50,346 nt of DNA from a virus: IMG/VR virus record IMGVR_UViG_3300009126_000009, positions 1 to 50,346 of that record; one strand, written 5' to 3'. The notes beneath the pieces were generated by a model, which was given only the letters and a program-made list of their open reading frames with translations, was not told the origin of the DNA and did not search any database. Position numbers and translations under genes: made by a program. Positions 15,801-34,126 of the stretch are shown here, in pieces (the stretch's first letter is position 1; the number at the start of each line of letters is the position of its first letter).

Positions 15801-15979
15801 ATTTAACGCTTAAAGTAGTGCCTGATGAAATGTCTATAGAAGAAATAGATGCAGAGCTTAATACACTTAGTAATCGTATGTTTGAAGAAGAGTTATTTGG
15901 TACACCTGAAGGAAAGAAAATAGAAGAGCGTGAATTAGTTTTAATGGAAATGAAAAAAAAAAAAATCAAAAACCGTTAG
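12860..15979 (+). CDS. Large internal virion protein, frame-0 product
   Basis: This 1039-residue, lysine/glutamate-rich, mostly helical protein follows the small internal virion gene, where T7-like phages encode gp15-like ejection proteins. The C-terminus reads MKKKKIKNR because a 13-A run (15953-15965) leads quickly to a TAG. The -1 frame downstream stays open for 169 codons after the run with similar charged composition and no ATG near its beginning. The natural product may therefore be about 1205 residues after slippage, or the A run may be miscounted. No enzymatic motif is visible. Confidence 0.75.
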   Translation: MANPKLPSRSNFRTRTRRGGSKTFDATDVPQVRTSSDPGQSAPPKGVFGEYETETLASMGEGLMNLGTQINTVSTKLKQREDDRFLLQAEEEIGTRLTTLKDESIEALDLSDSDNIKGLNGKVENYLKEYDGKASKLNLSPNSLYKYESLKHKLKNTFAVNIAKEKTAINHQRDQGRVYSLSDDIGLDPDKDVDHIADNFSEFDQGFDSQYASLFDEKIEPELKRQGKQRIFTRKIDRLLNEETEKNLLKVKRYLHDPDVWDLQYKPDGTFDKDFSQTLNSYKERVKGIENGRSDVQKRLLAVPQLQKQGILPTEKDSPIVRAFVIENKLPDKEERTEIDKLDDYNKAIGKLPKGEDGQPNPQQKAIVDEIFGVTIEPSDFELKRIYFEQWKKEHPKAEVEEIKQMEASIRDLPMSPELKAKLKVKGAKVISEAAKGADDTMVQALGLTPKPDKLEAVKQLQAQFAFYEEKFGTTIPDEDKKRAFMEQIGLTEKKLSPVEQLYKDVSDLKTRGIPVDDTEVQLLAKQKVGLPLSEAQRKQAIEIETRLNSYKKVQEAKGVVEGVEAIEDEDVKEKVERLLKINVPQDKLNSVELLANKIKSAKKLGVEFTSDQEAILYKQAVGTIPLTKEEKEEAAKLKGRLSAIEEKSKSDTEKELGILSDAGLEGKDSKKMNELIVQTLGGEVNLDTGTTSLPAEKRDLALNMLVRAEQLLKNKKANSLGQAVSMARKEIKIPQAVTAISIADKIIKDADAEPPPSSSQLENAEKDLDKIIKLEDATGWKSAAINIWNSTIGQISEGLISKDVVKARQKLALLEGDFIAAFKRSSRLPVWEQKRLASIFSGPATWTAAGEVREAMKEMDKMLTEEITFQRSLLIDKKMPFDKRVETLRSISALARFRKRVKEFEINPISKYQNVKSIKNASQKEITNLVNSITETDLLNWGNEHPEALKLLRKRVVPRAPSENKTNIKKKEVPIKTSKNLTLKVVPDEMSIEEIDAELNTLSNRMFEEELFGTPEGKKIEERELVLMEMKKKKIKNR
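15953..15965 (+). other. 13-A homopolymer, candidate frameshift site
   Basis: In frame 0 the run reads ATG AAA AAA AAA AAA ATC and the frame ends 12 bases after the ATC. A shift to the -1 frame continues without a stop to 16476. Runs of nine or more A are classical sites for polymerase slippage, and A-AAA-AAA is a classical ribosomal -1 slip motif. A sequencing or assembly length error would look the same. Confidence 0.6.
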
Positions 15980-16476
15980 AAGCGTTCAGAAATGAAAATA
16001 ATATTGAAGTTACGGAAGGAAAAGGAGAAGGATTTGCCGAAGTATTGTTCGCTGGCAACGATGGAAAAGGTAGAAACATTATTGAATTTAGAAAAGCGGG
16101 TAACTTTAAAAAACAGGACATAATTGATGCGGAAACTCTTCATTTCATGGGAGGAGCAAAAGAAGATGGAACACCTTACCATGAAGAGTTTTTTGATTTG
16201 AAACAGCAATTTATTAATGCAATGCCAGAAGACAGTAAAAAGTTTGCTGAAAGAAAATTTGCACAGGCAAAGAAAAAGGGAATGACTGGAACAAATTTTT
16301 CAAACTTTGAGAATTATGTTCAAAACGTTTTCTCGGATATGGAGTTAAGAGGGGCAATGTTCCCGCAACTTATGACAGATCCGAAAGAAAGAAAAGATTT
16401 TAAAAGCAGAAAGATTTTTACAACAGAGCAAAAAGCAATACTCAAACAGATGGATAAACTTGTAAAGGGTGAATAG
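15979..16476 (+). CDS. -1-frame continuation of the large internal virion protein
   Basis: The open frame gives LEAFRNENNIEVTEGKGEGFAEV... and then FAGNDGKGRNIIEFRKAG, with no stop back to 15931. The first ATG is far inside (after DAETLH), and TTG 16045 has no ribosome site. The segment AETLHFMGG...HEEFFDLKQQFINAMP looks like a folded C-terminal domain. The simplest reading is that it is translated as the end of the upstream protein by frameshifting. I give the frame from the frame-0 stop region; the true fusion point is the A run. Confidence 0.6.
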   Translation, partial: EAFRNENNIEVTEGKGEGFAEVLFAGNDGKGRNIIEFRKAGNFKKQDIIDAETLHFMGGAKEDGTPYHEEFFDLKQQFINAMPEDSKKFAERKFAQAKKKGMTGTNFSNFENYVQNVFSDMELRGAMFPQLMTDPKERKDFKSRKIFTTEQKAILKQMDKLVKGE

Positions 16477-19334
16477 TGGGAAAAGCGATTAAATCACAAG
16501 TAAAGCAAGATGTGGAGGCAATTTTAAACACCCGGACCTTAACTTCTCCTGAATCAGAAGTTGAGGAAAATGTAAAAGCTATTATGAAAACACAACTTGA
16601 ACCTTATCAATTAGTAACCGCTCCATTTGTTAAAGGTGTTGCCAAAACCTTGGACCTCCCCGGTGATGTGCTTGCGGGTGCAGTTAATTTAGGACTCAAA
16701 ATCCCACCCGGTATGGAGGAATTTGAAATTCCTTCCGGTGGGTTTAATTTAATGGCTGAAGAACTTGGGCTAACTGTTCCGGAAAAACAACTACCAGAAA
16801 CACCTTTAAGGCATGGTATGGAATTTGCCGGAGAATCTTTAACATTTGCGGGACCAATGAGAACGGTTGGAAAAAATATAACCCAAGAAGCAATTGAACA
16901 AGCTCCAAAAATTAAAAAGTTTTTCATGTCTAGCATCAAGAATATTGGTGAAACAGCTAGACAAAGACCCACAAGATTTTTTGCTGCGGAAACATTTTTG
17001 GGAGGTACTTCAGGAGTTGGTTATTATGTAGGTCAGGAGAAATTTCCGGATTCTCCAATCGCTCAATTTTTAACAACTGTAGCTGGAGGAACGCTTCCTC
17101 AATTTACTCCAACTTCTCTTATTTTGCGTAAGGGTGAAGAATATGTAAGGGCATTAGCACATTTTATAAATGCAGATACGACAACGCTTAGAAATTATAC
17201 TCGATTACAGAGATTTGCTGATGATCCAAAAATAGCGGCTGAACAAATTGGGCAAACAAAAGAACTGGCAAAACTCATTCCCGGTCTTTCAGAATTTTTA
17301 GACCCGGTTGATTTGACAAAGGATATAGGTCTTTTTGGTGTTAGGGCCGCTATTTTAAGAAAACTTCCGGAGCTTAGACAGGAGGATCTTAAAAAAATTG
17401 AGGAAATTAATGCTGCTCTCCATAAAGCATTTAAAGAATTAGCGGGTGGAAAATCTGTACGGCAAAATATTGAGTTGACAAGAGAATCACTTGAAGCACA
17501 TATCCAAGTTGTTGATGACATGATGGATCTTTATGTTAAATCCGCAACTAGAAAAGCCGATGATGCAGTTAGGGGAATTCCGGAAACAGATGTATTGAGT
17601 GCGGAAAGGGCTTTCTTTGAAGAACTAAACTTAGCCGAAGATGCCAGCTATAAAATTGTTAGAGGGGAATGGTTAGAAGTTCCCATGGATGAACTTGTTA
17701 GTGCAAGTTCAGTAATGGAAATTTGGAAAAAGGAATTACAACAACAATCACGCTATGGGGCCAATAAGAGCCGGATTCCATCTTTTGTTACAGAACGGTT
17801 TGGAAGATTTGTTAAAAACAAGAAAACTAAAAAATTAGAGTTCAAAAAGGGAACATTTAAAGCAGAAGATCTTACCCTTCAGGATGTTCAGGATGCAAGA
17901 AGTGAAATTCTTCAATTGATCAGAGAAGAAAGAGGAATTACCGGAAATAAGGATAGAAATAAAATAAGATATTTAAATGATTTGCAAAAAGGTCTTTTAA
18001 AAATACTGGAAAATGCTGGAGAAGGATTAAAAGGAGATGCGGCTTTTAAATTTAAAAAAGCTATAGCCGCAACCAAGTTACACAATGAAAAATTCAATCG
18101 AGGAATTGTATCAAAAATACTTGGGGTTGATACCACGGGCCTTGGAAGGATTGATCCTGAAATTTCAATTACTGCTTCCATTGGAACAGGAAGACCGGAA
18201 ATAACTGCTGTTAATTTTAAACAGATAGAAGCTGCATTGGACAAAGTTGAAACCCGGGTTCCTAAAGGAGAGACAGCAGAAACTTTATTTGAAGGACCGA
18301 ATCAAGCAAAGGAATATATAGCAGATTGGATAGCGGCTAAGTTTACCCAATCTCATATAGATGGGGGCCAAGTAAATGTTCAAAGTGCTACAAAATTTAT
18401 ACAGCAAAACGAAAGAATATTAAACAGGCTTCCGGATCTTAAAAAGCAACTTGAAAATGTAGTAGCAACCGGAAACACCGCTCAATTTAGAAAAACAAGA
18501 TTAAAGAATTTTAAATCCAGAATACAAAACCCCAGTGTTGCTAAATCGGCTCTTATTATACAAAAAGACCCGATGGAAGTTTTTGCACAGTTATCTAAAT
18601 CTCGGAAACCTGATACTGAAATCAGTACCATTATTAATCAAATTAATAAAGCTGATCCAAGTGGTGAGGCTTTAGAAGGATTGCAACACGCTTTTATAGA
18701 ATTTTTGAGGAGAAAATCTTCAATAGGGGAAATGGATCAACATGGTCATAAAATGTTATCAGGGTTTAACCTTACTAACATATTGGATGGGGTTGATGAA
18801 AATGAAGGTTTAAAATTAATTTTTGAAAAACTTTTAACAAAACAGCAACAAGAAAGGGTCCATGTAATCGCTGATTTTGCCAGATCGCTTGATGAAAGAA
18901 GAGGAGCAGAAGCGGTATTGGATCATCTGATTGGAGAAAAAACAGATAAAAATTTGGAAGCAATGGTTGGGATTTTTGGAGCAAGATTGGGATCTGTTCT
19001 AAACAGCATGGTAAGCAAAATCCCGGGCATTGGTAGTGGCCCGGGAGCTATTCAAGTTCCGGGGATAGTAGCACAACGGATGCGTGAAACTTTAAGGGAT
19101 TTTACTACAGATCCAGCCGGGAGCATTATTACTAAAGCAATACTTCAGGATGATGAGGAACTTTTCAAAGCTTTAACTACAAAAATAAAAAGCAGAGAAG
19201 ATGTAGTTTTTGTCAGTAAACAGCTTAATGCTTGGTTAATTTCAGCATTACTTGAAAATGAAGGATACTTGGGAGGGGATTCTGGACTTGATCCATCAAA
19301 AATAGCAGATACCCCAGTCCACCTTGTAGATTAA
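16476..19334 (+). CDS. Large internal virion protein (second)
   Basis: This 952-residue protein begins with GTG overlapping the TAG of the preceding frame, with AAAGGG 8 bases upstream. It has an N-terminal amphipathic region (LVTAPFVKGVAKTLDLPGDVLAGAVNLG) and long charged helices. T7-like genomes encode gp16-like ejection proteins in this position before the fibre. I see no transglycosylase motif. The assignment rests on order, size and composition. Confidence 0.65.
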   Translation: MGKAIKSQVKQDVEAILNTRTLTSPESEVEENVKAIMKTQLEPYQLVTAPFVKGVAKTLDLPGDVLAGAVNLGLKIPPGMEEFEIPSGGFNLMAEELGLTVPEKQLPETPLRHGMEFAGESLTFAGPMRTVGKNITQEAIEQAPKIKKFFMSSIKNIGETARQRPTRFFAAETFLGGTSGVGYYVGQEKFPDSPIAQFLTTVAGGTLPQFTPTSLILRKGEEYVRALAHFINADTTTLRNYTRLQRFADDPKIAAEQIGQTKELAKLIPGLSEFLDPVDLTKDIGLFGVRAAILRKLPELRQEDLKKIEEINAALHKAFKELAGGKSVRQNIELTRESLEAHIQVVDDMMDLYVKSATRKADDAVRGIPETDVLSAERAFFEELNLAEDASYKIVRGEWLEVPMDELVSASSVMEIWKKELQQQSRYGANKSRIPSFVTERFGRFVKNKKTKKLEFKKGTFKAEDLTLQDVQDARSEILQLIREERGITGNKDRNKIRYLNDLQKGLLKILENAGEGLKGDAAFKFKKAIAATKLHNEKFNRGIVSKILGVDTTGLGRIDPEISITASIGTGRPEITAVNFKQIEAALDKVETRVPKGETAETLFEGPNQAKEYIADWIAAKFTQSHIDGGQVNVQSATKFIQQNERILNRLPDLKKQLENVVATGNTAQFRKTRLKNFKSRIQNPSVAKSALIIQKDPMEVFAQLSKSRKPDTEISTIINQINKADPSGEALEGLQHAFIEFLRRKSSIGEMDQHGHKMLSGFNLTNILDGVDENEGLKLIFEKLLTKQQQERVHVIADFARSLDERRGAEAVLDHLIGEKTDKNLEAMVGIFGARLGSVLNSMVSKIPGIGSGPGAIQVPGIVAQRMRETLRDFTTDPAGSIITKAILQDDEELFKALTTKIKSREDVVFVSKQLNAWLISALLENEGYLGGDSGLDPSKIADTPVHLVD

Positions 19335-19348
19335 TAAAGGAATAAAGA

Positions 19349-21616
19349 ATGACTCTTACAGCAACCACAAATAAAGTAAGTTACTCCGGAAACGGGTCCA
19401 CCACATCTTTTCCGGTCACATTTATATTCTGGGATAACACAGATGTCAGAGTTATTCTGAAAACCGATGCTACCGGGGCAGAAACGTCATGGACCGAAGG
19501 AACACATTACAGCTTAACAGGTGGTGATGGTGCGACAGGAACTTTAACGGTTAGTACAAGTCCAACCGATTATACCCCGGCATCCGGGGAAACACTGGTT
19601 ATCAAGTCCAACCTTTCTGATTTACAGAATACAAGTTATCCTTTAGGTGGCAATTTTCCATCTACTTCTGCTGAACAACAGCACGATAAGTCTGTAAGAC
19701 TGACTCAACAACAAGCGGAAGAAATCTCCCGGGCTCTCAAGTTTAAAGAATCTTCAGCAATTACAGCAATTCCAATCGCTGATCCGGAAGCATTGAAAAT
19801 GGTCCGATGGAACTCCGGTGCTACTGAAATGGAAAACGTTTCATTAACGGATCTTTCTTTAGGACTCGGAACCGCAACCAAGTGGACATTTGATTCTTCA
19901 ACCTCGATGGCAGACCCCGGGACAGGTGATATTCGGCTTAATCATGCCACGCTTGCATCCGTAAGCCAGATAGCGGTGTCCAATGCTTCGGCTCAATCAG
20001 GTAATCCGGACATTTCAGACTGGGTAGCCGCTTGGGATAATTCCAACAGTGCAGTAAGAGGGTACATCTATATACATGAAGATGGAACCCCATCAAACTT
20101 TTGGGTTGGGTATATCAATTCTGGAATAACAGATAACTCTTCTTGGCTGCAAATTCCTGTTACTCATGTAGATAGTGGTGGGTCTTTCACTGCTTCGGAC
20201 AACTTGGTTGTCGGATTTAGTCAGACCGGGGATGCAGTATCTCCGGGGATATCAATGCTCTGGGATTCTGATACAGCAGACAGCGATAGCGGGGCTGGAA
20301 AAATATGGTTCAACCATGCGACAAAAAGTTCAGTCACCGTAGTTTATATAGATGATGTTGACACTAACTCGGTAAGTATAAATAACTATGTTGATACTTT
20401 TGATGATAGCACTTCTACCAATAAAGGAACGTTAATAGTTAAGAAGAAAACCGATTCTTCTGTTTATGCTCAGTACAGTGTGAATGGGTCTGTAACCAGC
20501 GCATCTACATATTCTAAAGTTGCGGTTAGCCATACGATTTCCAACGGAACTTTTACTGATGGTGATTCTGTTGAAGTTACATTCTTCCCATCAGGCTACA
20601 AGGGGGATACCGGAGCCCGGGGGTCTGATGCCGGATACGATATGTTGTGGGATTCTGACACAGCGGATAGTGATAGCGGAGCCGGAAAAGTTTGGTTCAA
20701 CCATGCGACAAAAAGTTCTGTAACAGTCATCTATGTAGACGATGTTGAAAAAGGCGGGACCGATATTCAAGCAGATTTGGATACATGGGATGATTCAACC
20801 AGTACCATTAACGGACAGATAAGAGTTGTTGATCAAACTGATGAAACGATCTTTGCTATCTACAATGTCACGGGAGCCGTAACCAGTAAAACGGGATATA
20901 GTTCTGTAGCAGTAACTCATGTTGCAAGTGGCGGTTCTTTTTCAGACGGTAACACAGTCACAATGAGTTTCACCCGCACTGGAGATAAAGGCGATACGGG
21001 TGCGACTGGAGCCACGGGTGCGACTGGAGCCACGGGTGCAACAGGTTCGACTGGAGCCACAGGGCAAGCCGGAGCCGATAGTGGACTTAGTTTTAGATTT
21101 AATACATCAACTGCTGATTCTGATAATGATGCCGGAGATTTTTGGTACAACAACGGAAGTGTCGGCAGTGCAACTTTAATATACTTTGACGATGCTGATA
21201 CTAACTCAACCGATGTTCAAACAATAACCGATGCTTTTGATGATTCTACTAATACTTCTCACAAAGGAACAATTAGAATTGTTCAAGAGGCTAATCAAGC
21301 TAATTGGCATCAATTCACGGTTAGCGGGTCTGTAACACAGAAGTCCGGGTATTCCAGTCTTGGAGTTACTTATGTGGCTTCCAATGGGACCATCAGCAAC
21401 AATGATCTTTGTAGAGTTCAATTTACCCGCACTGGAAACCTTGGTGCAACTGGCGCAACTGGAGCTACCGGAGCTACCGGAGCAACTGGTCCACAGGGGC
21501 CAGCGGGTCCAACTGGGGCTACAGGAGCGACAGGAGCGACTGGGCCACAAGGCCCAACAGGTGCTACTGGCCCTCAAGGTGAAGCCTCAATCGGAGATAT
21601 TATTGCACTAGGATAA
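19349..21616 (+). CDS. Tail fibre with T7-like N-terminus and collagen repeats
   Basis: This 755-residue protein starts with a T7 gp17-type attachment domain (about residues 1-140: [17 protein letters not shown]..., [24 protein letters not shown]). Four diverged repeats of about 110-130 residues follow, with signatures such as [16 protein letters not shown] and [11 protein letters not shown]. Two collagen-like Gly-X-Y stretches lie at about residues 546-575 and 696-744 ([20 protein letters not shown]). It ends GDIIALG without an obvious receptor-binding tip, so the downstream cassettes may supply that part. It is the proximal fibre or hub. Confidence 0.88.
20260..20720 (+). repeat. Recent internal duplication in the fibre gene
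   Basis: About 80 bases beginning with 'gggattctga' near 20262 and near 20648 are highly similar, mostly third-position differences. Both encode [14 protein letters not shown](I/V)[11 protein letters not shown]. The spacing is one protein repeat (about 126 codons), so a whole repeat unit was probably duplicated. Confidence 0.7.
20985..21075 (+). repeat. Collagen-coding tandem repeat 1
   Basis: Nine-base Gly-Ala-Thr units (GGTGCGACT, GGAGCCACG) alternate in tandem, encoding [10 protein letters not shown] and so on. Synonymous alternation forms an 18-base higher repeat, prone to length change. Confidence 0.8.
21430..21590 (+). repeat. Collagen-coding tandem repeat 2
   Basis: A second run of Gly-X-Y codons (GGTGCAACT, GGAGCTACC, GGGCCACAAGGC) forms the shaft just before the fibre C-terminus. 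Confidence 0.8.
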
Positions 21617-21634: not shown

Positions 21635-21967
21635 ATGGCTAACACTTTTAAACTTAAAACTGAAACTGGAGGAAGCACAGGGGCTAATACTGATTTAACT
21701 ATATATACAGTACCTTCATCAACCACAACTGTAGTTATCGGATGCACGATTGCTAATACGATTACTAGTTCTATTACGATTGATGCAAAGATAGAAAATG
21801 CTGACGGAGATAATATATACATCGGGAAAGACTTACCTGTTCCTTCTGGTTCGGCATTAGACATCCTCGCTGGTAAAATTGTAATGGAAACCTCAGACGT
21901 TTTAAAAGTACAAAGCGATACTGCTAATTCTTTTGACGTTGCACTCTCAATCATGGAGCAAACCTAA
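21635..21967 (+). CDS. Small beta-rich tail-associated protein
   Basis: This 110-residue protein (MANTFKLKTETGGSTGANTDLTIYTVP...) has alternating beta pattern and no cysteines. Short proteins of this type follow fibres in aquatic phages and are probably structural, but I know no defined function. The ribosome site AAGGAA precedes it, and its TAATG overlap leads into the first fibre cassette. Confidence 0.6.
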   Translation: MANTFKLKTETGGSTGANTDLTIYTVPSSTTTVVIGCTIANTITSSITIDAKIENADGDNIYIGKDLPVPSGSALDILAGKIVMETSDVLKVQSDTANSFDVALSIMEQT

Positions 21968-23097
21968 TGGCTGGTTTTATTGGGAATAAACCCGGAGCAA
22001 AATACGCTACCTTAACGAGACAGACTTTCAGTTCTCCAACTGGAACGAGTCATACGTTATCTCAGACCGTCACCAATAGTGATGATCTTTTGCTCTACAT
22101 AAATAATGTTAAGCAAAATCCTGCGGATTATACAGCGAGTGGTACGACCTTAACTACTGCTAGTTTAGCAGGGGGAACTGAGATGTACTGCCTGTATTAC
22201 GGCAAGACCACAGAGACAGTTGCTCCTCCTGCAAGTTCAGTAGGCGATTCGCATATTGTTGATATGGCTTCAAGTAAGCTGACAGGGGCTTTGCCAGCTT
22301 TGGATGGGTCGGCATTAACTGGTTTATCTCCTAACACTAACTTTATTGGTGGACTGAATACTGCAAATGGAACGGATGCTGCTCACGATATAAATATTGC
22401 TGTTGGTAGTGCAAGAGATTATACAGACACAGCAACAATGACTTTAGCTTCTGCAATAACAAAACAAATTGATGCGTCTTGGGCAGTAGGGACTAATGCT
22501 GGTGGGCTTGATACTGGATCGGTTGGAGCATCAACAGGGTATGGATTATATTTAATTAGACGTACTGATACAGGAGTGGTTGATGTTTTATTTAGTACAG
22601 ATATGTCTGCCTCTGGTGGAAGTGTAACTATGCCCACTAGCTATACCCAAAAAAGATTAATTGGATGGGTTAGGACAGATAGTAGTTCTAATATTTTATC
22701 GTTTCTTCAAAGCGGTGATTATTTTAGGATACAGGGTGACGTTGTCATAGAATTTAGTGATCCAACCATAACCCCAAATACTTTTGAAACTGCCACTCTT
22801 ACTACTCCCCCTTTATGTATTAGTCACGGATATTTGGCTCATAATAACACATCTGAGACTGCACTTAATCAGCATATGTGGATTAAAACCAAAGGGGCTG
22901 CTGATTCGGCTACAGATGGACGAGAGGCTACTTTAAAAATAGGCACATCTGGAACTCAAGATAATATGACAATGCAAGTAGATGTTCTGGCAGATGCTAA
23001 TAAGCAAGTTGAGTATGCTGCATCAGAGGTTGCAGGGGCAGCTGACTTTCAATACAGATTATTTGCTTGCGATATGATAACACGGAGTAACCCATAA
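21967..23097 (+). CDS. Cassette 1: fibre-like protein
   Basis: This 376-residue protein has an N-terminal block (MAGFIGNKPGAKYATLTRQTFSSPTG..., LLLYINNVKQNPADY) common in marine phage fibres. A connector motif SKLTGALPALDGSALTGL (about residues 107-124) recurs in cassettes 2 and 5, and a unique beta-rich C-terminal domain follows that may bind a receptor. Its stop overlaps the ATG of its small partner. Confidence 0.7.
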   Translation: MAGFIGNKPGAKYATLTRQTFSSPTGTSHTLSQTVTNSDDLLLYINNVKQNPADYTASGTTLTTASLAGGTEMYCLYYGKTTETVAPPASSVGDSHIVDMASSKLTGALPALDGSALTGLSPNTNFIGGLNTANGTDAAHDINIAVGSARDYTDTATMTLASAITKQIDASWAVGTNAGGLDTGSVGASTGYGLYLIRRTDTGVVDVLFSTDMSASGGSVTMPTSYTQKRLIGWVRTDSSSNILSFLQSGDYFRIQGDVVIEFSDPTITPNTFETATLTTPPLCISHGYLAHNNTSETALNQHMWIKTKGAADSATDGREATLKIGTSGTQDNMTMQVDVLADANKQVEYAASEVAGAADFQYRLFACDMITRSNP

Positions 23098-23405
23098 TGA
23101 TTAGTACAATTATAAACAGTAATGGTATTCCAGTTTATACTGGTCACGAAAAAAATGATAAGTTTATTGCTATTTTAGCAGAAGCAGGGAATAGTCGAAT
23201 TAATATTTCGCCTACATTTGATGAGTCTAAATGGGATGGGGAAAAATGGATCAACAATGAACAACCTCCTACATACGCAGAGAAGCGTAAATTAGAATAT
23301 CCAACAATAGAAGAATGTGTCCACGCAATATTAGACAATGAACTAGATGCTCTACAGGTGAAACGACAAGCAGTAAAGAAAAAATATCCGAAGGAGAATA
23401 ACTAA
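23097..23405 (+). CDS. Cassette 1: small partner protein
   Basis: This 102-residue protein ends AEKRKLEYPTIEECVHAILDN, then VKKKYPKENN. The C-terminal pattern (Y..KRK.EYP.......VK.KYPK) is shared with the partners at 24625, 25729, 26693 and 27624, while the N-terminal halves differ. Phage proteins with this tail are usually annotated as tail-assembly chaperone-like or structural. Alternation with fibre genes suggests one partner per fibre. Confidence 0.65.
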   Translation: MISTIINSNGIPVYTGHEKNDKFIAILAEAGNSRINISPTFDESKWDGEKWINNEQPPTYAEKRKLEYPTIEECVHAILDNELDALQVKRQAVKKKYPKENN

Positions 23406-24613
23406 TGCCATCTCTATCGAAAGTAGGATCAGAAATGTTGGACGGTGCGTTACCAGCGTTGGATGCGAGTAGCTTGACTAACCTAGACGCTAGGGATTTA
23501 GAAAATGCGTTGCCAGCTATCTCAGGTGCGAGCCTTACTGGTATTGATGGTGGTGCTAAGCAGAATTTTATTATTGACGGAGATTTTACGCAGTGGGTTG
23601 AAGGAACAACTTTTGCTTCCCCTAATAACAATGTTTATAATGCAACATTTTTTAGAACTGTTTATACAGGTACGGGCAATCTTACTATTAATAGGTCAAC
23701 AGACGTACCTACTGTTGCACAATCAGGATATGGTTCATCTTATAGCTTTGAAACTGATGTTACAACAGCAGATGCAACTCCTCACAGCACTGCTCAGTAT
23801 TATCATAACCATCAAATGACAGGTTCTGTTTTTGCTCACTTACATCAACAAGAAGTCACACTTTCCTTTTGGCACAAACACACCAAAACAGGAACTTATT
23901 GTGTTGGCTTTTCAAATGGGGCGCAGGATAGATCATATATTGCTGAATATACGCAGACTACTACAAATACTTGGGAAAAGGCTAGTATTACATTGACAAT
24001 GGACACTAGTGGAACGTGGCTATTGACTGAGGCAGACAAAGGATTGGAGATAAAGTTTGTTATGGCTCAATCATCGGCTTCAACGTGGACAGGTACTGCA
24101 AACACTTGGCAAGCAGGACACAAATATACAACTTCTAATCAAGTACAAAATTTTGATAGCACATCCAACTACTTTAGAATAGCCCAAGTCGGCCTCTATC
24201 TTGGTTCAACAGCACCAACTTTTACATCACCCCCGCTTGCTACGGTGAAAGATCAAGTGGGTTATTATGTGGAAGAATTGCTTGAGCATCAGGGGGCTGG
24301 GGGTGCAACTGCAAGAATGATGGGTTCTGGATTTTTCAATGATACAGATTCCTTTTGGATTTCTATACATTATACCAGCAAGAAACGTAAAGTTCCTATT
24401 ATAACTTATGGTTCTACAATGACACATTATTCGGTTACTTGGGAAAATAGTGCTAACTACGCTGAGGCTTTTAATCAGGTTACGCACATATCTAAAGTAG
24501 CGTGTGCCATTCACGCTGAACTGGACAATACTGGTGCTACTCACGGTGGGTATGGCGCACTTCTACACGCTATTAATACCGCTACTTTTTTTCTCGTAGA
24601 CGCACGACATTAG
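23405..24613 (+). CDS. Cassette 2: fibre-like protein with beta-sandwich
   Basis: This 402-residue protein has two connector motifs near the start (GALPALDASSLTNL and NALPAISGASLTGI) and then NFIIDGDFTQWVEGTTFASP, a start typical of phage carbohydrate-binding-like domains. The strand pattern FWHKHTKTGTYCVGF and NYFRIAQVGLYLGS is typical of such modules. A last region of about 100 residues is of unknown type. It probably is a receptor-binding tip. Confidence 0.72.
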   Translation: MPSLSKVGSEMLDGALPALDASSLTNLDARDLENALPAISGASLTGIDGGAKQNFIIDGDFTQWVEGTTFASPNNNVYNATFFRTVYTGTGNLTINRSTDVPTVAQSGYGSSYSFETDVTTADATPHSTAQYYHNHQMTGSVFAHLHQQEVTLSFWHKHTKTGTYCVGFSNGAQDRSYIAEYTQTTTNTWEKASITLTMDTSGTWLLTEADKGLEIKFVMAQSSASTWTGTANTWQAGHKYTTSNQVQNFDSTSNYFRIAQVGLYLGSTAPTFTSPPLATVKDQVGYYVEELLEHQGAGGATARMMGSGFFNDTDSFWISIHYTSKKRKVPIITYGSTMTHYSVTWENSANYAEAFNQVTHISKVACAIHAELDNTGATHGGYGALLHAINTATFFLVDARH

Positions 24614-24624
24614 GAGTTTAATTA

Positions 24625-24942
24625 ATGAGTATAACAAAAATAACAGATTGTGTGGATGCTGGTAATTATAAAGTAGAAACGGATGAGGGTGCTACACATC
24701 ACGTTCCAAAAACAGATAATGAGGCTCTTGAGCGATTTGGTATTAAACAATGGATTGATGACGGCAAGAGTATAAACGAATATGTACCTCCTAAAAAATC
24801 GTGGGTGAGTAAGCGTTTAGCTAAGATGGCAGACGGTGGATATGGTTCTATTGGAGAACAATTAGAAATGATCGGTGAACAGGGGATGGATGTTTTTCAA
24901 ACTCATATTGCAAAAGTTAAATCAGATATACCAAAGGAGTAA
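24625..24942 (+). CDS. Cassette 2: small partner protein
   Basis: This 105-residue protein is the second member of the partner family. It ends with ...KRLAKMADGGYGSIGEQLEMIGE, then HIAKVKSDIPKE, the most diverged version of the family tail. The N-terminus (MSITKITDCVDAGNYKVETDEGATHHV) is unrelated to the other partners, consistent with matching to its own fibre. Confidence 0.6.
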   Translation: MSITKITDCVDAGNYKVETDEGATHHVPKTDNEALERFGIKQWIDDGKSINEYVPPKKSWVSKRLAKMADGGYGSIGEQLEMIGEQGMDVFQTHIAKVKSDIPKE

Positions 24943-24945
24943 CGA

Positions 24946-25140
24946 ATGGCTTACATAGGTAATAGTCCAGAGAATGACGGCCCTTATGTTGGATCAGGGG
25001 ATGAGTATATTAGGACTAACTCAAATCAGATCAACCAGAATCTAACTATACCGCTTAATATGAACGGCTCAAGTGTTGGCCCAATTACGGTGAGCGACAC
25101 ATATACCATTACAATCAATGGCGTGTGGACTATAATTTAA
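24946..25140 (+). CDS. Short fibre N-terminal-like protein
   Basis: This 64-residue protein starts MAYIGNSPENDGPYVGSGDEY, like the attachment block of marine fibres, and ends ITVSDTYTITINGVWTII, a small beta tip. It lacks the middle domains of the other fibres, so it may be a miniature fibre, a head fibre or a remnant of a cassette that lost its tip. The upstream AAAGGAG ribosome site supports translation. Confidence 0.6.
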   Translation: MAYIGNSPENDGPYVGSGDEYIRTNSNQINQNLTIPLNMNGSSVGPITVSDTYTITINGVWTII

Positions 25141-25149
25141 GGATATAAA

Positions 25150-25722
25150 ATGGCAAGTACAATTAAAGTAGACACGATTGATACTCCTAGTGGTGCAGGG
25201 AATATAACGCTGAATAGACCTATTGCTGGGGATGGCAGTAATCTTACTGGATTAGGTTATACAGAAGTCGGGGTTGCCACTACCACATCAGGTTCAACAA
25301 GCACAATTAGTGGAATACCAGCAGAAGTTAAGACTGTTATGATTGTAGTTAATGCTACTTCAAATACAGGGGCAGCAGAGCTACAGTTACTACTTGGAGA
25401 TTCAGGTGGGATAGAAACATCAGGTTATCTTAGTATGTCACATAAGTCTGACGTTGGGACAGTAACGCATAGTTCTGATACAACATATATACTACTGGCT
25501 AATGGTGGTGGTGGTGCTGACCCTTATTCTGGCATTGGTCATCTGACAAGGTCTGCTAGTGGCGTAAATACTTGGGTGTATACATCAATCATTTACCAAA
25601 GCATCCAAGCCCAAAACTGGACAAGTGCTACCAAGTCCTTATCTGGAGAACTTACTCAAATACAATTAAAGACCAGCGGAACCTTTGATGCTGGTAATTG
25701 GAATATCTACTACCAAAAATAG
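25150..25722 (+). CDS. Cassette 3: fibre-like protein
   Basis: This 190-residue protein starts MASTIKVDTIDTPSGAGNITLNRPIAGDGSNLTGLG, a widespread short-fibre N-terminus in aquatic phages, followed by a beta-rich tip. It is the shortest cassette with a partner. An AAGGATA ribosome site lies upstream. Confidence 0.68.
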   Translation: MASTIKVDTIDTPSGAGNITLNRPIAGDGSNLTGLGYTEVGVATTTSGSTSTISGIPAEVKTVMIVVNATSNTGAAELQLLLGDSGGIETSGYLSMSHKSDVGTVTHSSDTTYILLANGGGGADPYSGIGHLTRSASGVNTWVYTSIIYQSIQAQNWTSATKSLSGELTQIQLKTSGTFDAGNWNIYYQK

Positions 25723-25728
25723 GATATT

Positions 25729-26079
25729 ATGGGATACTTAGCTATAGTTAAACAGACAGGCGGTACGGTAGAAAAGTACCAAGACTTTGCCACGGAAGCA
25801 GAGGCAGATGCTCACGTTGTGACTTATGGTGGTTTTGTCGTTCAACAGCCAACGAATCTTAATTTTGATTATTTAGTTGCTGACAGTTCAAAGAAAACTC
25901 TGACATTTGACCAAGCAAGATACGACAACGATCAAGCACTTATTAATTCAACACAATACCAAAGAGACAGGAAACCTCTCTACGGAACGTGGGAGGAGCA
26001 ATTAGATATGATGTATCACGGCACTTGGAAAGACCACGTTGCAAAGGTTAAAGCCGACATACCGAAAGGAAATAGCTAA
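25729..26079 (+). CDS. Cassette 3: small partner protein
   Basis: This 116-residue protein (MGYLAIVKQTGGTVEKYQDFATEAEADAHV...) ends YQRDRKPLYGTWEEQLDMMYHG, then HVAKVKADIPKGNS. It has the partner-family tail with EEQLDMM as in other phage tail-assembly-like proteins. Its stop overlaps the next fibre start. Confidence 0.62.
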   Translation: MGYLAIVKQTGGTVEKYQDFATEAEADAHVVTYGGFVVQQPTNLNFDYLVADSSKKTLTFDQARYDNDQALINSTQYQRDRKPLYGTWEEQLDMMYHGTWKDHVAKVKADIPKGNS

Positions 26080-26696
26080 TGAGTCCACAAATTGACATTT
26101 CAGGAAGCGACTCCAAACTAAGTTGCGACAAAATTCAGGGCCAGAGTGCGAGTACTATAACAGTTCCCACAGGGCATACAGTTGCAATTACGGATAGTGG
26201 TGGGCTTACTCTGGCTGGTACGGCTGTTAATGCTGGGAGCTTGGGAAAAGTTTTGCAAGTGGTAAATACACAAACTGGTGCTGTAGCTACAGGAACCACA
26301 GTAATGCCAGAGGACGATACCATCCCACAGAACACTGAGGGAGTAGAATTTATGACGTTGGCTATAACTCCAACATCCGCTTCCAGTAAATTATTAATTC
26401 AAGTTCACGCTATGGCTTCACATAGTGATGGAACTGCCAATACCATAGGGATAGCATTATTCCAAGATTCTACAGCCAATGCTCTTGGGGCTATGCACAT
26501 TAGACTTACTGTTTCATTAAGAAAATTATTAAGTTTCAATCATTATATGACGGCTGGAACTACATCCGCTACAACTTTTAAAGTTCGTATAGGTGGTTCA
26601 GATGCAGGGACAACTACATTCAACGGTAATGGAGGTTCACGTTTATTGGGTGGAGCGATGGCATCATCAATTACAATAACGGAGATAGCAGTATGA
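26079..26696 (+). CDS. Cassette 4: fibre-like protein
   Basis: This 205-residue protein opens MSPQIDISGSDSKLSCDKIQGQSAS and contains GKVLQVVNTQTGAVATGTT, matching GKVLQVVQTVTTTQIANTT in cassette 5. The domains after that point align in pattern (MTLAITPTSASSKLLIQV versus MSVSITPSATSSKILIMM), so cassettes 4 and 5 share a tip fold of different sequence. Confidence 0.7.
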   Translation: MSPQIDISGSDSKLSCDKIQGQSASTITVPTGHTVAITDSGGLTLAGTAVNAGSLGKVLQVVNTQTGAVATGTTVMPEDDTIPQNTEGVEFMTLAITPTSASSKLLIQVHAMASHSDGTANTIGIALFQDSTANALGAMHIRLTVSLRKLLSFNHYMTAGTTSATTFKVRIGGSDAGTTTFNGNGGSRLLGGAMASSITITEIAV

Positions 26697-26992
26697 CCGA
26701 CATAGGTGCAGTAATAGGATGGAAATTTAACCATCAAGAAGGTATGACTACCAGAGATGGTGTCATTACAGAGTTTCCCGATAGTATTCCATCACAAGCC
26801 GATCAAGACAAGTGGACAAAGGAATATGAAGAATATGTATCAGCCAATGCTTATAAAGAGAAACGCAAAGCAGAATACCCTCCTATAGTCGACTACCTAG
26901 ACGGCATAGTTAAAGGCGATCAGACTCAAATAGATAAGTACATAGCAGATTGTTTGGCAGTAAAAGAGAAATATCCGAAAGGAGCAAATTAG
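26693..26992 (+). CDS. Cassette 4: small partner protein
   Basis: This 99-residue protein starts by ATGA overlap with its fibre. It ends YKEKRKAEYPPIVDYLDGIVKG, then DCLAVKEKYPKGAN, one of the clearest copies of the partner tail. Confidence 0.64.
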   Translation: MTDIGAVIGWKFNHQEGMTTRDGVITEFPDSIPSQADQDKWTKEYEEYVSANAYKEKRKAEYPPIVDYLDGIVKGDQTQIDKYIADCLAVKEKYPKGAN

Positions 26993-27622
26993 ATGGCTAT
27001 AACTATAAACGGCTCAGGATCGATTACAGGTCTATCGGCTGGTGGACTTCCTGATGCTAGTGTTACCAATGATGATCTGGCAGGGTCAATAGCTGACGGC
27101 AAGATAACAGGGCTGACAGCTTCCAAGTTAACTGGTGCTTTGCCAGCTATCTCAGGTGCTAGTCTTACAGGGATTAGTGGTGGTAAAGTTTTGCAAGTTG
27201 TTCAGACAGTAACGACTACACAAATTGCAAATACAACTGACCCTAGTGATCTTGATTTAATGAGTGTTAGTATCACTCCTTCAGCTACAAGTTCTAAGAT
27301 ACTTATTATGATGACTTGGTTTGAAGGTGCTAGTAATCCAAATGGAGCATATAGGTTATTGAGAGATTCTACTTCAATAGGTGATGCTAGTAGTAGTTTT
27401 GGTGGAGGTACTGGTTTTGCGGCATACGATGATGCCGTGCCAACAAATGATTATATGCTGGAATCAAAGGCTTTTACTTTTTTAGATAGTCCAAGCACAA
27501 CTTCAGCAATCACTTATAAATTAAGCACACATAGTAGTGCGGCAGTTTATTTCAATACGGCTAAATATGCCGCAAATGGTCACGCTACATCTACTATAAC
27601 CGTTATGGAAATAGGAGCATAA
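26993..27622 (+). CDS. Cassette 5: fibre-like protein
   Basis: This 209-residue protein starts MAITINGSGSITGLSAGGLPDASVTNDDLAGSI, carries the connector SKLTGALPAISGASLTGI also seen in cassettes 1 and 2, and then has the GKVLQVV tip domain seen in cassette 4. It looks like a recombinant of the connector of one cassette and the tip family of another. Confidence 0.7.
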   Translation: MAITINGSGSITGLSAGGLPDASVTNDDLAGSIADGKITGLTASKLTGALPAISGASLTGISGGKVLQVVQTVTTTQIANTTDPSDLDLMSVSITPSATSSKILIMMTWFEGASNPNGAYRLLRDSTSIGDASSSFGGGTGFAAYDDAVPTNDYMLESKAFTFLDSPSTTSAITYKLSTHSSAAVYFNTAKYAANGHATSTITVMEIGA

Positions 27623-27623
27623 T

Positions 27624-27917
27624 ATGGCACACATAGTTCAAGCATTACATTCACTTCGCCCTAATGCTCAGTGGACACTACGAGATAGTGAATTAGAATG
27701 GAACGACAAAGTACAAATACAACCAACTGATGCAGAGATACAGGCAGAAATTACCAAACTCCAAGCAGAGTGGGATAGCAAAGACTACGCAAGAAAACGC
27801 AAAGCAGAATACGATCAACTCAACCAGTTTGAAATGATGTTTGACGATCAGCGTGACGGCACGACAACGTGGGTGGATAAAATAAACGAAATTAAAAGTA
27901 GGTATCCGAAAGGTTAG
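27624..27917 (+). CDS. Cassette 5: small partner protein
   Basis: This 97-residue protein has an N-terminus (MAHIVQALHSLRPNAQWTLRDSE) of the type seen in XkdW-like or DUF4376-like tail proteins. The tail is YARKRKAEYDQLNQFEMMFDD, then INEIKSRYPKG. It ends the five-cassette array. Confidence 0.65.
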   Translation: MAHIVQALHSLRPNAQWTLRDSELEWNDKVQIQPTDAEIQAEITKLQAEWDSKDYARKRKAEYDQLNQFEMMFDDQRDGTTTWVDKINEIKSRYPKG

Positions 27918-31419: not shown

Positions 31420-31974
31420 ATGAGTACAAAAGTAAAAACGGGAGTAGTCCGTATGCACTACTGTCATTTCTTTAAACCCCATGCGCCAAAAGGAAGTAAC
31501 GAAGAAAAGTTTTCCGGAAGGTTTTTTGTTCCTAAAACCGACAAGGAAACAGTCCAGCGATTCCAAGATGCAATCAAGGAAGAGATCAAGGAAAAGTGGG
31601 GTAAAAAAGCACCCGCAAATATCTGGATGCCCTTCAAAGATGGGGATGATGAAGAACAACTTCCAAACAATGTGGAAGCGGGTACAGAGCCCTATGAAGG
31701 TCACTACTACTTCAATGCCAAAAGCGATTCTGCTCCCGGTGTTGTAGATGAGAATCGCCAACCTGTTATTGACCCGAGTGAAGTTAACTGGGGTGACTTT
31801 GGCAGGGTAAGTGTCAGCGTGTATGCCTACGACAACGTAAGCAAAGGGATAGGCATTGGGCTTAACAACGTGCAATGGCTTTACAAGGGTGAATCTCTTG
31901 GAAGCCGCACCCGGGCTGAAGATGAATTCAATGATGATTTTGAAGTTAAAGAAACAGAAGATTTTCTTGCATGA
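31420..31974 (+). CDS. DUF2815 family protein (probable ssDNA-binding)
   Basis: This 184-residue protein begins MSTKVKTGVVRMHYCHFFKP. The ATG at 31420 has TAAGGAGAC 7 bases upstream and is preferred over upstream in-frame codons. Segments such as FSGRFFVPKTDKETVQRF and WGDFGRVSVSVYAYDN fit DUF2815, an OB-fold-like family found between DUF2800 and phage DNA polymerase and thought to bind single-stranded DNA. It overlaps the polymerase start (ATGA). Confidence 0.85.
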   Translation: MSTKVKTGVVRMHYCHFFKPHAPKGSNEEKFSGRFFVPKTDKETVQRFQDAIKEEIKEKWGKKAPANIWMPFKDGDDEEQLPNNVEAGTEPYEGHYYFNAKSDSAPGVVDENRQPVIDPSEVNWGDFGRVSVSVYAYDNVSKGIGIGLNNVQWLYKGESLGSRTRAEDEFNDDFEVKETEDFLA

Positions 31975-33872
31975 AGATTCATTTCGACTTTGAAACCTAC
32001 TCTGAAAGCGACATCCGTAAGACGGGTGCATGGCAGTACGCTATGCACCCAACCACGGAAGTTCAATGTATGGCTTACAGTATAGACGATCAAAAACCTG
32101 TTCTTTGGCTTCCTAAAGAACCTATACCAGACTGGGTTACTGATCCAAAAACAGAACTCCACGCATGGAATTCTTTTTTTGAATGGGTAATCTGGACCCA
32201 CGTTTTAAAGTGGCCTAAAGTTCCAATCGAAAGATGGCATGACACGGCGGCACAAGCAGCGGCTCTCGCTTTACCAAGATCACTCGCAGGATGTGGTGAA
32301 GCTTTAAATATTAGAGAAGATCTTCAAAAAAATAAAAGAGGAAATTATCTAATAACAAAGCTTTGCAAACCCTACCGTGGAAAAAGAGTTAAGGACGAAG
32401 AACTATTTAAAGAGCTTTGTGAATACTGTATTCAGGATGTAGTAGCAGAACGTAAGCTTTCAAGAGTTCTTAAACCATTGAGTGACGATGAAAGAGAAAT
32501 TTGGATACTTGACCAAATTATCAACATCCGGGGTGTTTATGTTGATTTAAAAAATGTCAAACACGCAACAAAGCTGATTGACATAATCACCGAAGAGTTA
32601 AATCAAGAAATTAAAGAAATAACAGACGGTGAATTAGAAGATGTATCTAAAAGACAAAAAGTTCTCGACTATTGTTCTCGGCTAGGCTATCCACTCGCAA
32701 AATATGACAAAAAATATTTGGAAGAACGTTTAGATAATAATGGCATCCCACCAACTATTAAAAGAATTATTCAAATAAGGCAGCAACTTGGTAAAACGTC
32801 TACCAAAAAATACGAATCTTTAGAAACACTAACAGACCCAAACAGCAGAGTTCATGGTCTACTCATGTACCATGGGGCTTCCACCGGACGTTGGGCCGGA
32901 AAACATTTCCAGCCACAAAACCTCCCAAGACCTTCCTTTTCTGACATTGAAACTTGCATCAACTTATTCAGGATGGAAGATCCGGAGATCCTCTCCCTAT
33001 TGTATGACGATCCGATGGAAGCCCTTTCTTCATGTGTGCGTGGAATGATCACCGCACCGCCCGGGAAAACATTGATGGTTGCAGATTACTCAGCGATTGA
33101 AGCCCGAGTTCTCGCATGGTTGGCGGGACAGGATGATGTTACTAAAGTTTTTAAAGGTCATGGAAAAATATATGAGCATACCGCATCCCAAATCTACAAT
33201 AAAGATATCATTGAGATATCTAAAAATGAACGCTTTTTGGGTAAAGTCGCAACTTTGGCTCTAGGTTATCAAGGTGGTAAAAGAGCTTTTCAAGCAATGG
33301 CAAAAAATTATTCAGTTGATATAAACGAAGAAGTAGCAGCCAGAGTTGTTGAAGACTGGAGGTCAGCTAACCAGAAGATCACTTCTTTCTGGAACAACAT
33401 TGAGAGGGCCGCAATCGCCACAGTGCAGAATCCATGCAAACCTCAATTGTACCGAGGTATCCGTTTTAGTTGTCACCATGGTTTTCTTTTTTGTCAACTT
33501 CCATCCAAAAGACAAATTGCTTATTACGATCCTCAACTTTCAGAAGGGATGTATGGAAAAACTCAATTAACTTATATGGGAACTAATTCATTAACTAAAA
33601 AATGGGAAAGAATTGGAACCTACGGTGGAAAATTAACAGAGAATATTGTTCAAGGTGTAGCTAGATGTTTGCTTGCAAATGCAATGCTTAATATTGAGAA
33701 AAAAAATTATGAAATTGTTTTAACTATCCACGATGAAATCATAGCTGAAGTTGACCAAAATTTTGGCAGTATTGAAGAGTTTGAATTTTTAATGGAGCAA
33801 TTACCAGAGTGGGCTCAAGGATTGCCTTTGAAAGCTGAAGGGTATTCATGTGAAAGATACCAAAAAGGATAA
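31971..33872 (+). CDS. DNA polymerase, family A with 3'-5' exonuclease
   Basis: This 633-residue replicative polymerase has a DEDD-type proofreading domain (D6/E8 in HFDFETYSES, N67-E71, D156 in YCIQDVVAE). The polymerase domain carries motif A ADYSAIEARVLAWLAG (catalytic D372), motif B starting near R421 (RFLGKVATLALGYQGG), and motif C HDE at 587-589. All catalytic residues are present and the size fits single-subunit phage polymerases lacking the 5'-nuclease domain. It begins by ATGA overlap with the DUF2815 gene. Confidence 0.95.
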   Translation: MKIHFDFETYSESDIRKTGAWQYAMHPTTEVQCMAYSIDDQKPVLWLPKEPIPDWVTDPKTELHAWNSFFEWVIWTHVLKWPKVPIERWHDTAAQAAALALPRSLAGCGEALNIREDLQKNKRGNYLITKLCKPYRGKRVKDEELFKELCEYCIQDVVAERKLSRVLKPLSDDEREIWILDQIINIRGVYVDLKNVKHATKLIDIITEELNQEIKEITDGELEDVSKRQKVLDYCSRLGYPLAKYDKKYLEERLDNNGIPPTIKRIIQIRQQLGKTSTKKYESLETLTDPNSRVHGLLMYHGASTGRWAGKHFQPQNLPRPSFSDIETCINLFRMEDPEILSLLYDDPMEALSSCVRGMITAPPGKTLMVADYSAIEARVLAWLAGQDDVTKVFKGHGKIYEHTASQIYNKDIIEISKNERFLGKVATLALGYQGGKRAFQAMAKNYSVDINEEVAARVVEDWRSANQKITSFWNNIERAAIATVQNPCKPQLYRGIRFSCHHGFLFCQLPSKRQIAYYDPQLSEGMYGKTQLTYMGTNSLTKKWERIGTYGGKLTENIVQGVARCLLANAMLNIEKKNYEIVLTIHDEIIAEVDQNFGSIEEFEFLMEQLPEWAQGLPLKAEGYSCERYQKG

Positions 33873-34056
33873 TTTTAAAATTATGGAATCAACAGAAAAT
33901 TGTTTTATTTGTGGATATGACGGGCATTTGTATGAAGCGCAAGGTGGAAAAATAATGTGTCCTCAATGCCAAACCATTCAGCCTTTTTCAGATTGTTGTC
34001 AAGGCTCTGAAATAGATTGTAAGCCAGATAAAAAAGAAGATAAAAGTGAAGAATAA
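33850..34056 (+). CDS. Small zinc-ribbon protein
   Basis: This 68-residue protein has two CxxC pairs (CFICG and CPQCQ) that form a zinc ribbon, plus a third cysteine group (CCQGSEIDC), and an acidic-lysine tail. GTG 33850 has GAAGG seven bases upstream inside the polymerase gene and is preferred. ATG 33883 would be an alternative without a ribosome site. It may be a replication or transcription accessory. Confidence 0.6.
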   Translation: MKDTKKDNFKIMESTENCFICGYDGHLYEAQGGKIMCPQCQTIQPFSDCCQGSEIDCKPDKKEDKSEE

Positions 34057-34126
34057 CAATAGTGTGATAGAATCCAATACTGTTACGGGACGGCTCGACC
34101 AAATAATTAGCGGGGAGAGCAAAGTT

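What the first reader, a model, noticed from the sequence alone, without database searches (positions are those of the whole stretch)
21967..27917. Five tandem fibre-plus-partner cassettes
Five fibre-like genes (21967, 23405, 25150, 26079, 26993) alternate with five small genes (23097, 24625, 25729, 26693, 27624) whose C-termini share Y..KRK..Y and VK.KYPK or VK.DIPK, while N-termini differ. Fibre genes share connector motifs (GALPAISGASLTGI) and two tip types (GKVLQVV). A multi-tip adhesin set with dedicated partners could broaden host range or allow switching by recombination in the connectors. The small 24946 gene may be a remnant or an extra miniature fibre.
Basis: partly seen in the sequence, partly recalled or inferred. 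Interest (0 to 1): 0.75.

Follow-up and report, generated by a model that had tools for sequence, protein, structure and literature searches.

The report
Five fibre-tip and matched-helper gene cassettes
A marine virus of bacteria carries five short receptor-binding fibre genes in a row, each followed by a small helper gene whose front half matches that fibre's tip; comparison with many related viruses shows tip and helper front half being swapped together, which suggests that a widespread family of unknown function consists of dedicated fibre-folding helpers.

Summary
Five fibre-like genes alternate with five small genes of one family (PHROG 9114, 'unknown function', with intermediates reaching Pfam XkdW). 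Such cassettes are widespread in marine phages: 205 distinct ones in 178 fetched loci, with the small gene starting within 27 bases of the preceding gene in all 189 cases with a neighbour. Two other contigs carry five and six copies.

The main new result is where the parts recombine. Across 167 cassettes the fibre tip co-varies with the N-part of the small protein (Mantel r 0.59). It barely co-varies with that protein's own C-part (0.14) or with the fibre's own base (0.17). The exchanged unit therefore crosses the gene boundary (tip + small-protein N-part) and sits in a constant frame (fibre base + small-protein C-part). One relative joins the window's S4 N-part and F4-type tip to the S3 C-part and F3-type base. 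Sampling by the F2 tip recovers the same N-part type downstream with an XkdW-like C-part, other C-parts or none.

Best reading: dedicated two-module fibre chaperones that work like Mu Tfa or Pam3 gp25 but show no detectable homology to Tfa. Binding was not tested. Switching within one genome is not supported. The 24946 gene is conserved, not a remnant.

The parts
19349..21616 (+). F0: main tail fibre / shaft, tail-protein N-terminus and collagen-like C-terminal region, no distinct tip
   Evidence: phrog_13893 and phrog_1640 tail protein over residues 1-131 and beyond; Pfam Collagen 3.7e-11
21635..21967 (+). 110-aa conserved phage protein between shaft and array
   Evidence: phrog_26609, phrog_1276, unknown function; homologous stretch in L032-L034
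21967..23097 (+). F1: fibre, base type 1 (MAGFIGNKPG)
   Evidence: phrog_19294 tail fiber 1.2e-5; base shared with L130 (FN 0.87), tip not (0.05)
23097..23405 (+). S1: small partner protein of F1
   Evidence: phrog_9114 7e-9
23405..24613 (+). F2: fibre, base type 2 with F2-type tip
   Evidence: phrog_4492 tail fiber 1.3e-30; tip relatives L276-L321
24625..24942 (+). S2: small partner of F2; N-part of the type that follows F2-type tips elsewhere
   Evidence: phrog_9114 6e-6; N-part profile built from other phages hits it at E 4e-12
24946..25140 (+). m: free-standing 64-aa mini fibre/tip gene without a small partner
   Evidence: matches the extreme C-terminus of a 3319-residue tail fiber family, phrog_5342 2.3e-6; conserved with few non-synonymous changes; 0 of 24 tip-sampled relatives followed by an S gene
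25150..25722 (+). F3: short fibre, base type 3 (MASTIK..TP)
   Evidence: base type recurs ahead of type 4 in L020, L024, L067
25729..26079 (+). S3: small partner of F3
   Evidence: phrog_9114 6e-13
26079..26696 (+). F4: short fibre, base type 4; TNF-like tip from about 26244
   Evidence: Pfam PF05475 Pgp3 C-terminal domain 31.7 bits against cut-off 25; AlphaFold2 tip pLDDT mostly above 90; Foldseek to Pgp3 4jdo/6gjt E 2.8e-10
26693..26992 (+). S4: small partner of F4
   Evidence: phrog_9114 1e-9; N-part 86% identical in L024, where it follows an F4-type tip in another slot
26993..27622 (+). F5: short fibre, base type 5; tip of the F4 family from about 27182
   Evidence: phrog_6942 tail fiber 2e-14; F4-F5 alignment z 9.2
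27624..27917 (+). S5: small partner of F5
   Evidence: phrog_9114 2e-24 over the whole length; AlphaFold2 pLDDT 93, helix-hairpin-long helix then a helical C-part

Best explanation
The array encodes five short receptor-binding fibres, each with its own small folding/assembly chaperone. Each small protein has two modules: the variable N-part (about residues 1-55) recognises one fibre-tip type, and the conserved helical C-part serves a common step such as oligomerising or aligning the fibre C-termini. Tip and N-part are inherited and exchanged as one unit across the gene boundary, between the constant fibre base and the constant small-protein C-part, by recombination between related phages. Shown: family membership, strict gene order, tip/N-part co-variation, breakpoints, and N-part-only or alternative C-part partners after F2-type tips. 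Inferred: that the proteins touch, that they are chaperones rather than virion components, that the fibres are trimeric, and that different tips serve different receptors.
For: Gene order: in 189 of 189 cassettes with an upstream gene the small gene starts within 27 bases of its end, median 1, a 4-base overlap being commonest. Co-variation over 167 cassettes: tip~N-part Mantel r 0.586 (largest of 500 permutations 0.042), tip~C-part 0.141, N-part~C-part 0.192, base~tip 0.172; partial correlation tip~N-part 0.564 with base, C-part and next gene held. It holds for pairs with unrelated base and C-part: r 0.497, 41 pairs against 5.2 expected, maximum 14 in 1000 permutations. Chimeras: L120 and L029 share tip and N-part (1.00, 1.00) but not C-part or base (0.28, 0.14); L029, L031 and L110 carry identical or near-identical N-parts with three different C-parts; L024 = F3-type base, F4-type tip, S4 N-part (86%), S3 C-part (86%). 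Tip-based sampling independent of the small family: 20 small genes after F2-type tips share one N-part type (all leave-one-out E at or below 1e-5) with XkdW-like, other or no C-part; that profile finds all four F2-tip cassettes among 167, including window S2, and only one other below 1e-3. The position after an F4-type tip is elsewhere occupied by a Pfam tail-assembly-chaperone protein (L229, PF16778 2e-11). Known precedent: Pam3 gp25 has a non-conserved N-domain binding a TNF-like tip and a conserved helical C-domain (PMC9608196).
Against: No binding, co-folding or virion data. Tip and N-part are neighbours in the DNA, so joint transfer alone could couple them, although equally adjacent segments are not coupled. 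Among loci sampled by an F4-type tip only 5 of 40 are followed by this family and most have no small partner, so such tips do not always need one. About half of distantly related tip pairs show no detectable N-part similarity. The earlier count of 79 of 88 F4-family tips followed by S is inflated because those loci were fetched through S. The S5 fold match to XkdW is weak (E 1.1), and XkdW itself has no known function.
Confidence: 0.72

Rival explanations
1. The small proteins are permanent virion parts that cap the fibre tip or themselves touch the receptor (adhesin-like), not transient chaperones.
For: The same coupling of N-part and tip would be expected; Mu Tfa stays on the fibre tip in the virion and the A5/V22 chaperones may act as caps (PMC10579305; PMC9608196).
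Against: N-part identity among same-tip pairs is as high as that of the rest of the protein, so it is not diverging faster than its fibre; the C-part is conserved and helical; Pam3 gp25 was not detected in virions by mass spectrometry. No virion proteomics of this family was found.
Confidence: 0.15
2. Tip and N-part travel together only because they are adjacent; the small gene is an unrelated passenger whose conserved 3' end acts as a recombination anchor.
For: Conserved blocks at the 3' ends of small genes plus the next fibre's 5' end are natural anchors for homologous recombination.
Against: Adjacency alone does not couple base~tip (0.17), N-part~C-part (0.19) or C-part~next base (0.24); F2-type tips are followed by the same N-part type even when the C-part anchor is absent or different.
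Confidence: 0.1
3. Within-genome tip switching: recombination between connectors of the array lets one phage lineage change which tip it displays.
For: A tip/N-part unit occurs in different slots in different phages (L024); connector blocks of 49 nt at 86% and 32 nt at 78% exist inside the window.
Against: C-parts of the five window slots are only 26-41% identical and bases differ; the best inverted repeats are 19 nt at 84% and look like chance; all five fibre frames are open and co-oriented with no silent copies.
Confidence: 0.05

Closest known systems
Pam3 gp24/gp25 tail fibre and chaperone (PMC9608196; PDB 7YPX)
   Same: Fibre gene with a two-domain partner; variable N-domain matched to a TNF-like tip; conserved helical C-domain
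   Different: gp25 is a Tfa-type protein of 162 aa serving one fibre; here about 100 aa, another family, five cassettes, crossover inside the partner gene
Phage Mu / P2 / lambda Tfa (gpU, gpG), PDB 5YVQ
   Same: Encoded right after the fibre; variable N-part and conserved C-part
   Different: No detectable profile homology (hhalign probability 0.1%); Mu exchanges its two fibre/chaperone modules by an invertase, not seen here
Alteromonas phage V22 gp27 and A5 gp9 (DUF4376) chaperones (PMC10579305)
   Same: Fibre partner co-inherited with its fibre in marine phages and shared across distant phages
   Different: Window proteins do not match DUF4376; they are about half the size
XkdW (PBSX; PF09636; PDB 2HG7) and PHROG 9114
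   Same: 12 of 44 family members match PF09636, best 2.7e-13; top fold hit of S5 is 2HG7, weak; all five window proteins are in PHROG 9114
   Different: Window members themselves miss PF09636; no function is assigned to either family
Marine metaviromic islands (PMC3909814)
   Same: Hypervariable host-recognition regions of marine phages; its table lists 4 XkdW and 4 tail fiber assembly genes
   Different: The passages read did not link XkdW to tips or describe the frame/insert exchange

Membership tests
PHROG 9114 | profile match | tested here: met
   All five, E 2e-24 to 6e-6
Pfam XkdW (PF09636) | profile score above the curated cut-off | tested here: not met
   No window protein matches; relatives do, e.g. 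L115 45.4 bits against 24.6 and 12 of 44 members of the family
Pfam XkdW (PF09636) | same fold as 2HG7 | tested here: inconclusive
   2HG7 is rank 1 but E 1.1, TM 0.54 by target length
Tfa tail fibre assembly proteins | sequence/profile homology | tested here: not met
   hhalign of A2 against 9 Tfa proteins, probability 0.1%; only S1 touches phrog_105, E 0.023
Tfa tail fibre assembly proteins | gene directly after its fibre; variable N-part, conserved C-part | tested here: met
Tfa tail fibre assembly proteins | binds the fibre C-terminus and is needed for folding | not testable with these tools
   needs co-expression or a complex model
DUF4376 (PF14301) and Phage_tail_APC (PF16778) chaperones | profile match | tested here: not met
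   No hit for the window proteins; L229 at the equivalent position matches PF16778 at 2e-11, L203 DUF4376 only weakly
Pgp3 C-terminal / TNF-like tip domain (PF05475) | profile above cut-off and fold (F4) | tested here: met
   31.7 bits against 25; Foldseek E 2.8e-10 to Pgp3, then TNF-like lectins PLTL and BC2L-C
Invertible tail-fibre switch (Mu G segment type) | inverted repeats flanking alternative tips plus an invertase beside them | tested here: not met
   Only chance-like inverted repeats; no recombinase in the array; two tyrosine recombinases lie about 6 and 16 kb away

The most novel reading that the evidence does not exclude
PHROG 9114/XkdW-like proteins are a Tfa-unrelated family of fibre chaperones with interchangeable modules. 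The N-part is a tip-specific clamp that works with several unrelated C-parts or alone. The C-part is matched to the fibre base of its slot, so that it helps direct each tip to its own attachment site, letting one virion display five different tips in fixed positions.
Probability: 0.3. Interest if true: 0.75.

Novelty: new variant of a known kind. Interest (0 to 1): 0.58.

Why it matters
Proteins of this family sit next to fibre genes in marine phages, including the pelagiphage HTVC010P, where they are annotated as hypothetical, and no function was found in the papers held. The tip/N-part linkage gives a direct, cheap test of their role. If right, the N-part type predicts the tip type, marks natural boundaries of receptor-binding modules, and allows fibre tips to be recognised and expressed correctly from metagenomes. 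It also gives a concrete molecular shape to the hypervariable host-recognition islands of marine phages.

Tried and rejected
Megablast of the region against annotated phages found nothing. The 952-aa virion protein found one relative only, a near-identical contig that ends at the array, so whole-array comparison of close kin was not possible. Homology to Tfa was tested and rejected. PDB sequence search with the small family gave nothing credible. The hypothesis that F4-family tips always need this partner was raised from S-fetched loci (79 of 88) and rejected on tip-fetched loci (5 of 40). 'Remnant' for the 24946 gene was rejected. Five copies as a record was rejected: one contig has five and another six (L060). 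An inversion switch was rejected. A genome-contig scan gave two MAG contigs only. Own promoters for each cassette: hits do not exceed shuffles.
Full report
WHAT IS THERE. The window is a virus record of 50,346 bases with a podovirus-type structural module: terminase, head-tail adaptor, major head protein and tail tubular proteins. Tail tubular B is closest to pelagiphages of the HTVC010P kind, at 42-47% identity. The host is unknown. Downstream of a collagen-containing shaft fibre (19349-21616) and a 110-aa protein come five fibre-like genes F1-F5, each followed within a few bases, or overlapping, by a small gene S1-S5 of 97-116 aa. A 64-aa gene m (24946) lies between S2 and F3.

THE SMALL GENES ARE ONE FAMILY. 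All five match phrog_9114 (function unknown), mainly through the C-terminal half. Seven of ten pairs exceed shuffles at z 5-13. None matches Pfam credibly, but 12 of 44 relatives match XkdW, best 2.7e-13. AlphaFold2 of S5 is confident (pLDDT 93): helix, beta-hairpin and long helix in the N-part, short helices in the C-part. Its best fold match is XkdW 2HG7, but weak at E 1.1. There is no profile homology to Tfa proteins.

THE FIBRES. F1, F2, F4 and F5 match tail-fibre PHROGs; F3 matches none. The F4 tip is a TNF-like/Pgp3 C-terminal domain by Pfam and by model and Foldseek (E 2.8e-10; next TNF-like sugar-binding lectins). F5 has a related tip. F1, F2 and F3 tips are different. The m gene is a free-standing version of another fibre C-terminus and is under purifying selection.

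HOW GENERAL IT IS. Four scans of IMG/VR with small proteins, plus one with a virion protein, gave the loci of the main data set. They hold 205 distinct cassettes. In all 189 with an upstream gene the gap is at most 27 bases, median 1; upstream genes are rich in G, S and T like fibres, and none is itself an S gene. Tandem cassettes are common: 46 cases. Thirty records searched whole carry 1 to 5 copies, and one contig carries 6 by gene order (L060). Five is high but not unique. In cultured phages the gene is mostly annotated as hypothetical.

THE EXCHANGE UNIT. DNA comparison with relatives shows conserved blocks made of the 3' end of one small gene plus the 5' end of the next fibre, with unrelated DNA between. 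Each cassette was split into fibre base (FN), tip (FT), small N-part (SN) and small C-part (SC). Tip and N-part are strongly coupled (Mantel r 0.586) and every other combination is weak, 0.14-0.21. With the next gene's start included, the partial correlation of FT with SN is 0.56; the next largest is FN with the next base, 0.33, that is, slot order. The coupling survives when base and C-part are unrelated (r 0.50; 41 pairs against 5.2 expected). Individual chimeras make it visible. L029, L031 and L110 have identical or near-identical first ~62 residues followed by three different C-parts, with the change near the Y.R.R motif. L024 carries an F3-type base, an F4-type tip, an S4 N-part (86% identical) and an S3 C-part (86%). 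Base types keep their order: type 3, then 4, then 5 recurs in L024, L067 and the window. So each slot is a constant frame into which a tip/N-part unit is inserted.

A CHECK WITHOUT THE SMALL FAMILY. Those loci were fetched through the small gene, so tips were also used as queries. After F2-type tips, 20 small genes share one N-part type, each recovered by a leave-one-out profile at E at or below 1e-5. Their C-part is XkdW-like in 8, of other kinds in several, and absent in seven (51-74 aa). That profile, made without the window, finds window S2 at 4e-12 and the three other F2-tip cassettes among 167, with one other hit below 1e-3. After m-type tips no S gene follows, 0 of 24. After F4-type tips only 5 of 40 have this family; at the same place one has a PF16778 tail-assembly-chaperone protein (L229) and one an S4-type N-part with another C-part (L217), and most have no small partner. 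So dependence on a partner varies with context, and the strong count was biased.

INTERPRETATION. The pattern is that of a tip-specific N-part with a shared C-part, as established for Mu Tfa and for Pam3 gp25, whose variable N-domain holds a TNF-like tip while the helical C-domain trimerises (PMC9608196), and it resembles the co-inherited DUF4376 chaperones of marine Alteromonas phages (PMC10579305). Metaviromic-island work already listed XkdW among genes of hypervariable islands, function unknown (PMC3909814). Spontaneous clear-plaque mutants of Bacillus phages Sam46 and Sam112 map to the C-terminal helix of an XkdW-like protein, for which the authors suggest a role in tail assembly (PMC8190038). 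I conclude these are dedicated fibre chaperones: the linkage is shown, the mechanism is inferred. They work like Tfa; they are not shown to be Tfa.

LIMITS. Loci are a sample shaped by seed patterns. Cassettes are not independent; permutation keeps composition but not phylogeny. Gene calls in relatives are mechanical. No complex could be modelled here.

Noticed in passing
22010 (end of L037 match): A contig 99.99% identical over 15.5 kb (IMGVR_UViG_3300009104_000100) stops at window 22010, just inside the start of the fibre array, as an assembly break at a hypervariable region would.
   Followed up: partly
34046-34975 (+) and 43748-44587 (-): Two tyrosine recombinases (Pfam Phage_integrase 2e-23 and 6e-29) in one podovirus genome, far from the fibre array.
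   Followed up: no
20255-20361 and 20642-20748: A 107-nt direct repeat at 83% inside the shaft fibre gene.
   Followed up: no
31971-33872: DNA polymerase I closest to Firmicute prophages (38%) while tail tubular B is closest to pelagiphages: mosaic genome.
   Followed up: partly
12860-15979 and 16476-19334: Proteins of 1039 and 952 aa in the internal-virion position: the first has no PHROG or Pfam match, the second no Pfam match and only one IMG/VR relative.
   Followed up: partly
L207, L202, L212 after the F4-type tip: In several phages an acetyltransferase-like gene, not a chaperone, directly follows the F4-type tip (judged by eye, not by a profile).
   Followed up: no
L023:7077 onwards, L096, L297, L306-L308, L315, L316: Small genes consisting of the N-part alone (51-74 aa) after fibre tips, suggesting the N-part can act without a C-part.
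   Followed up: partly
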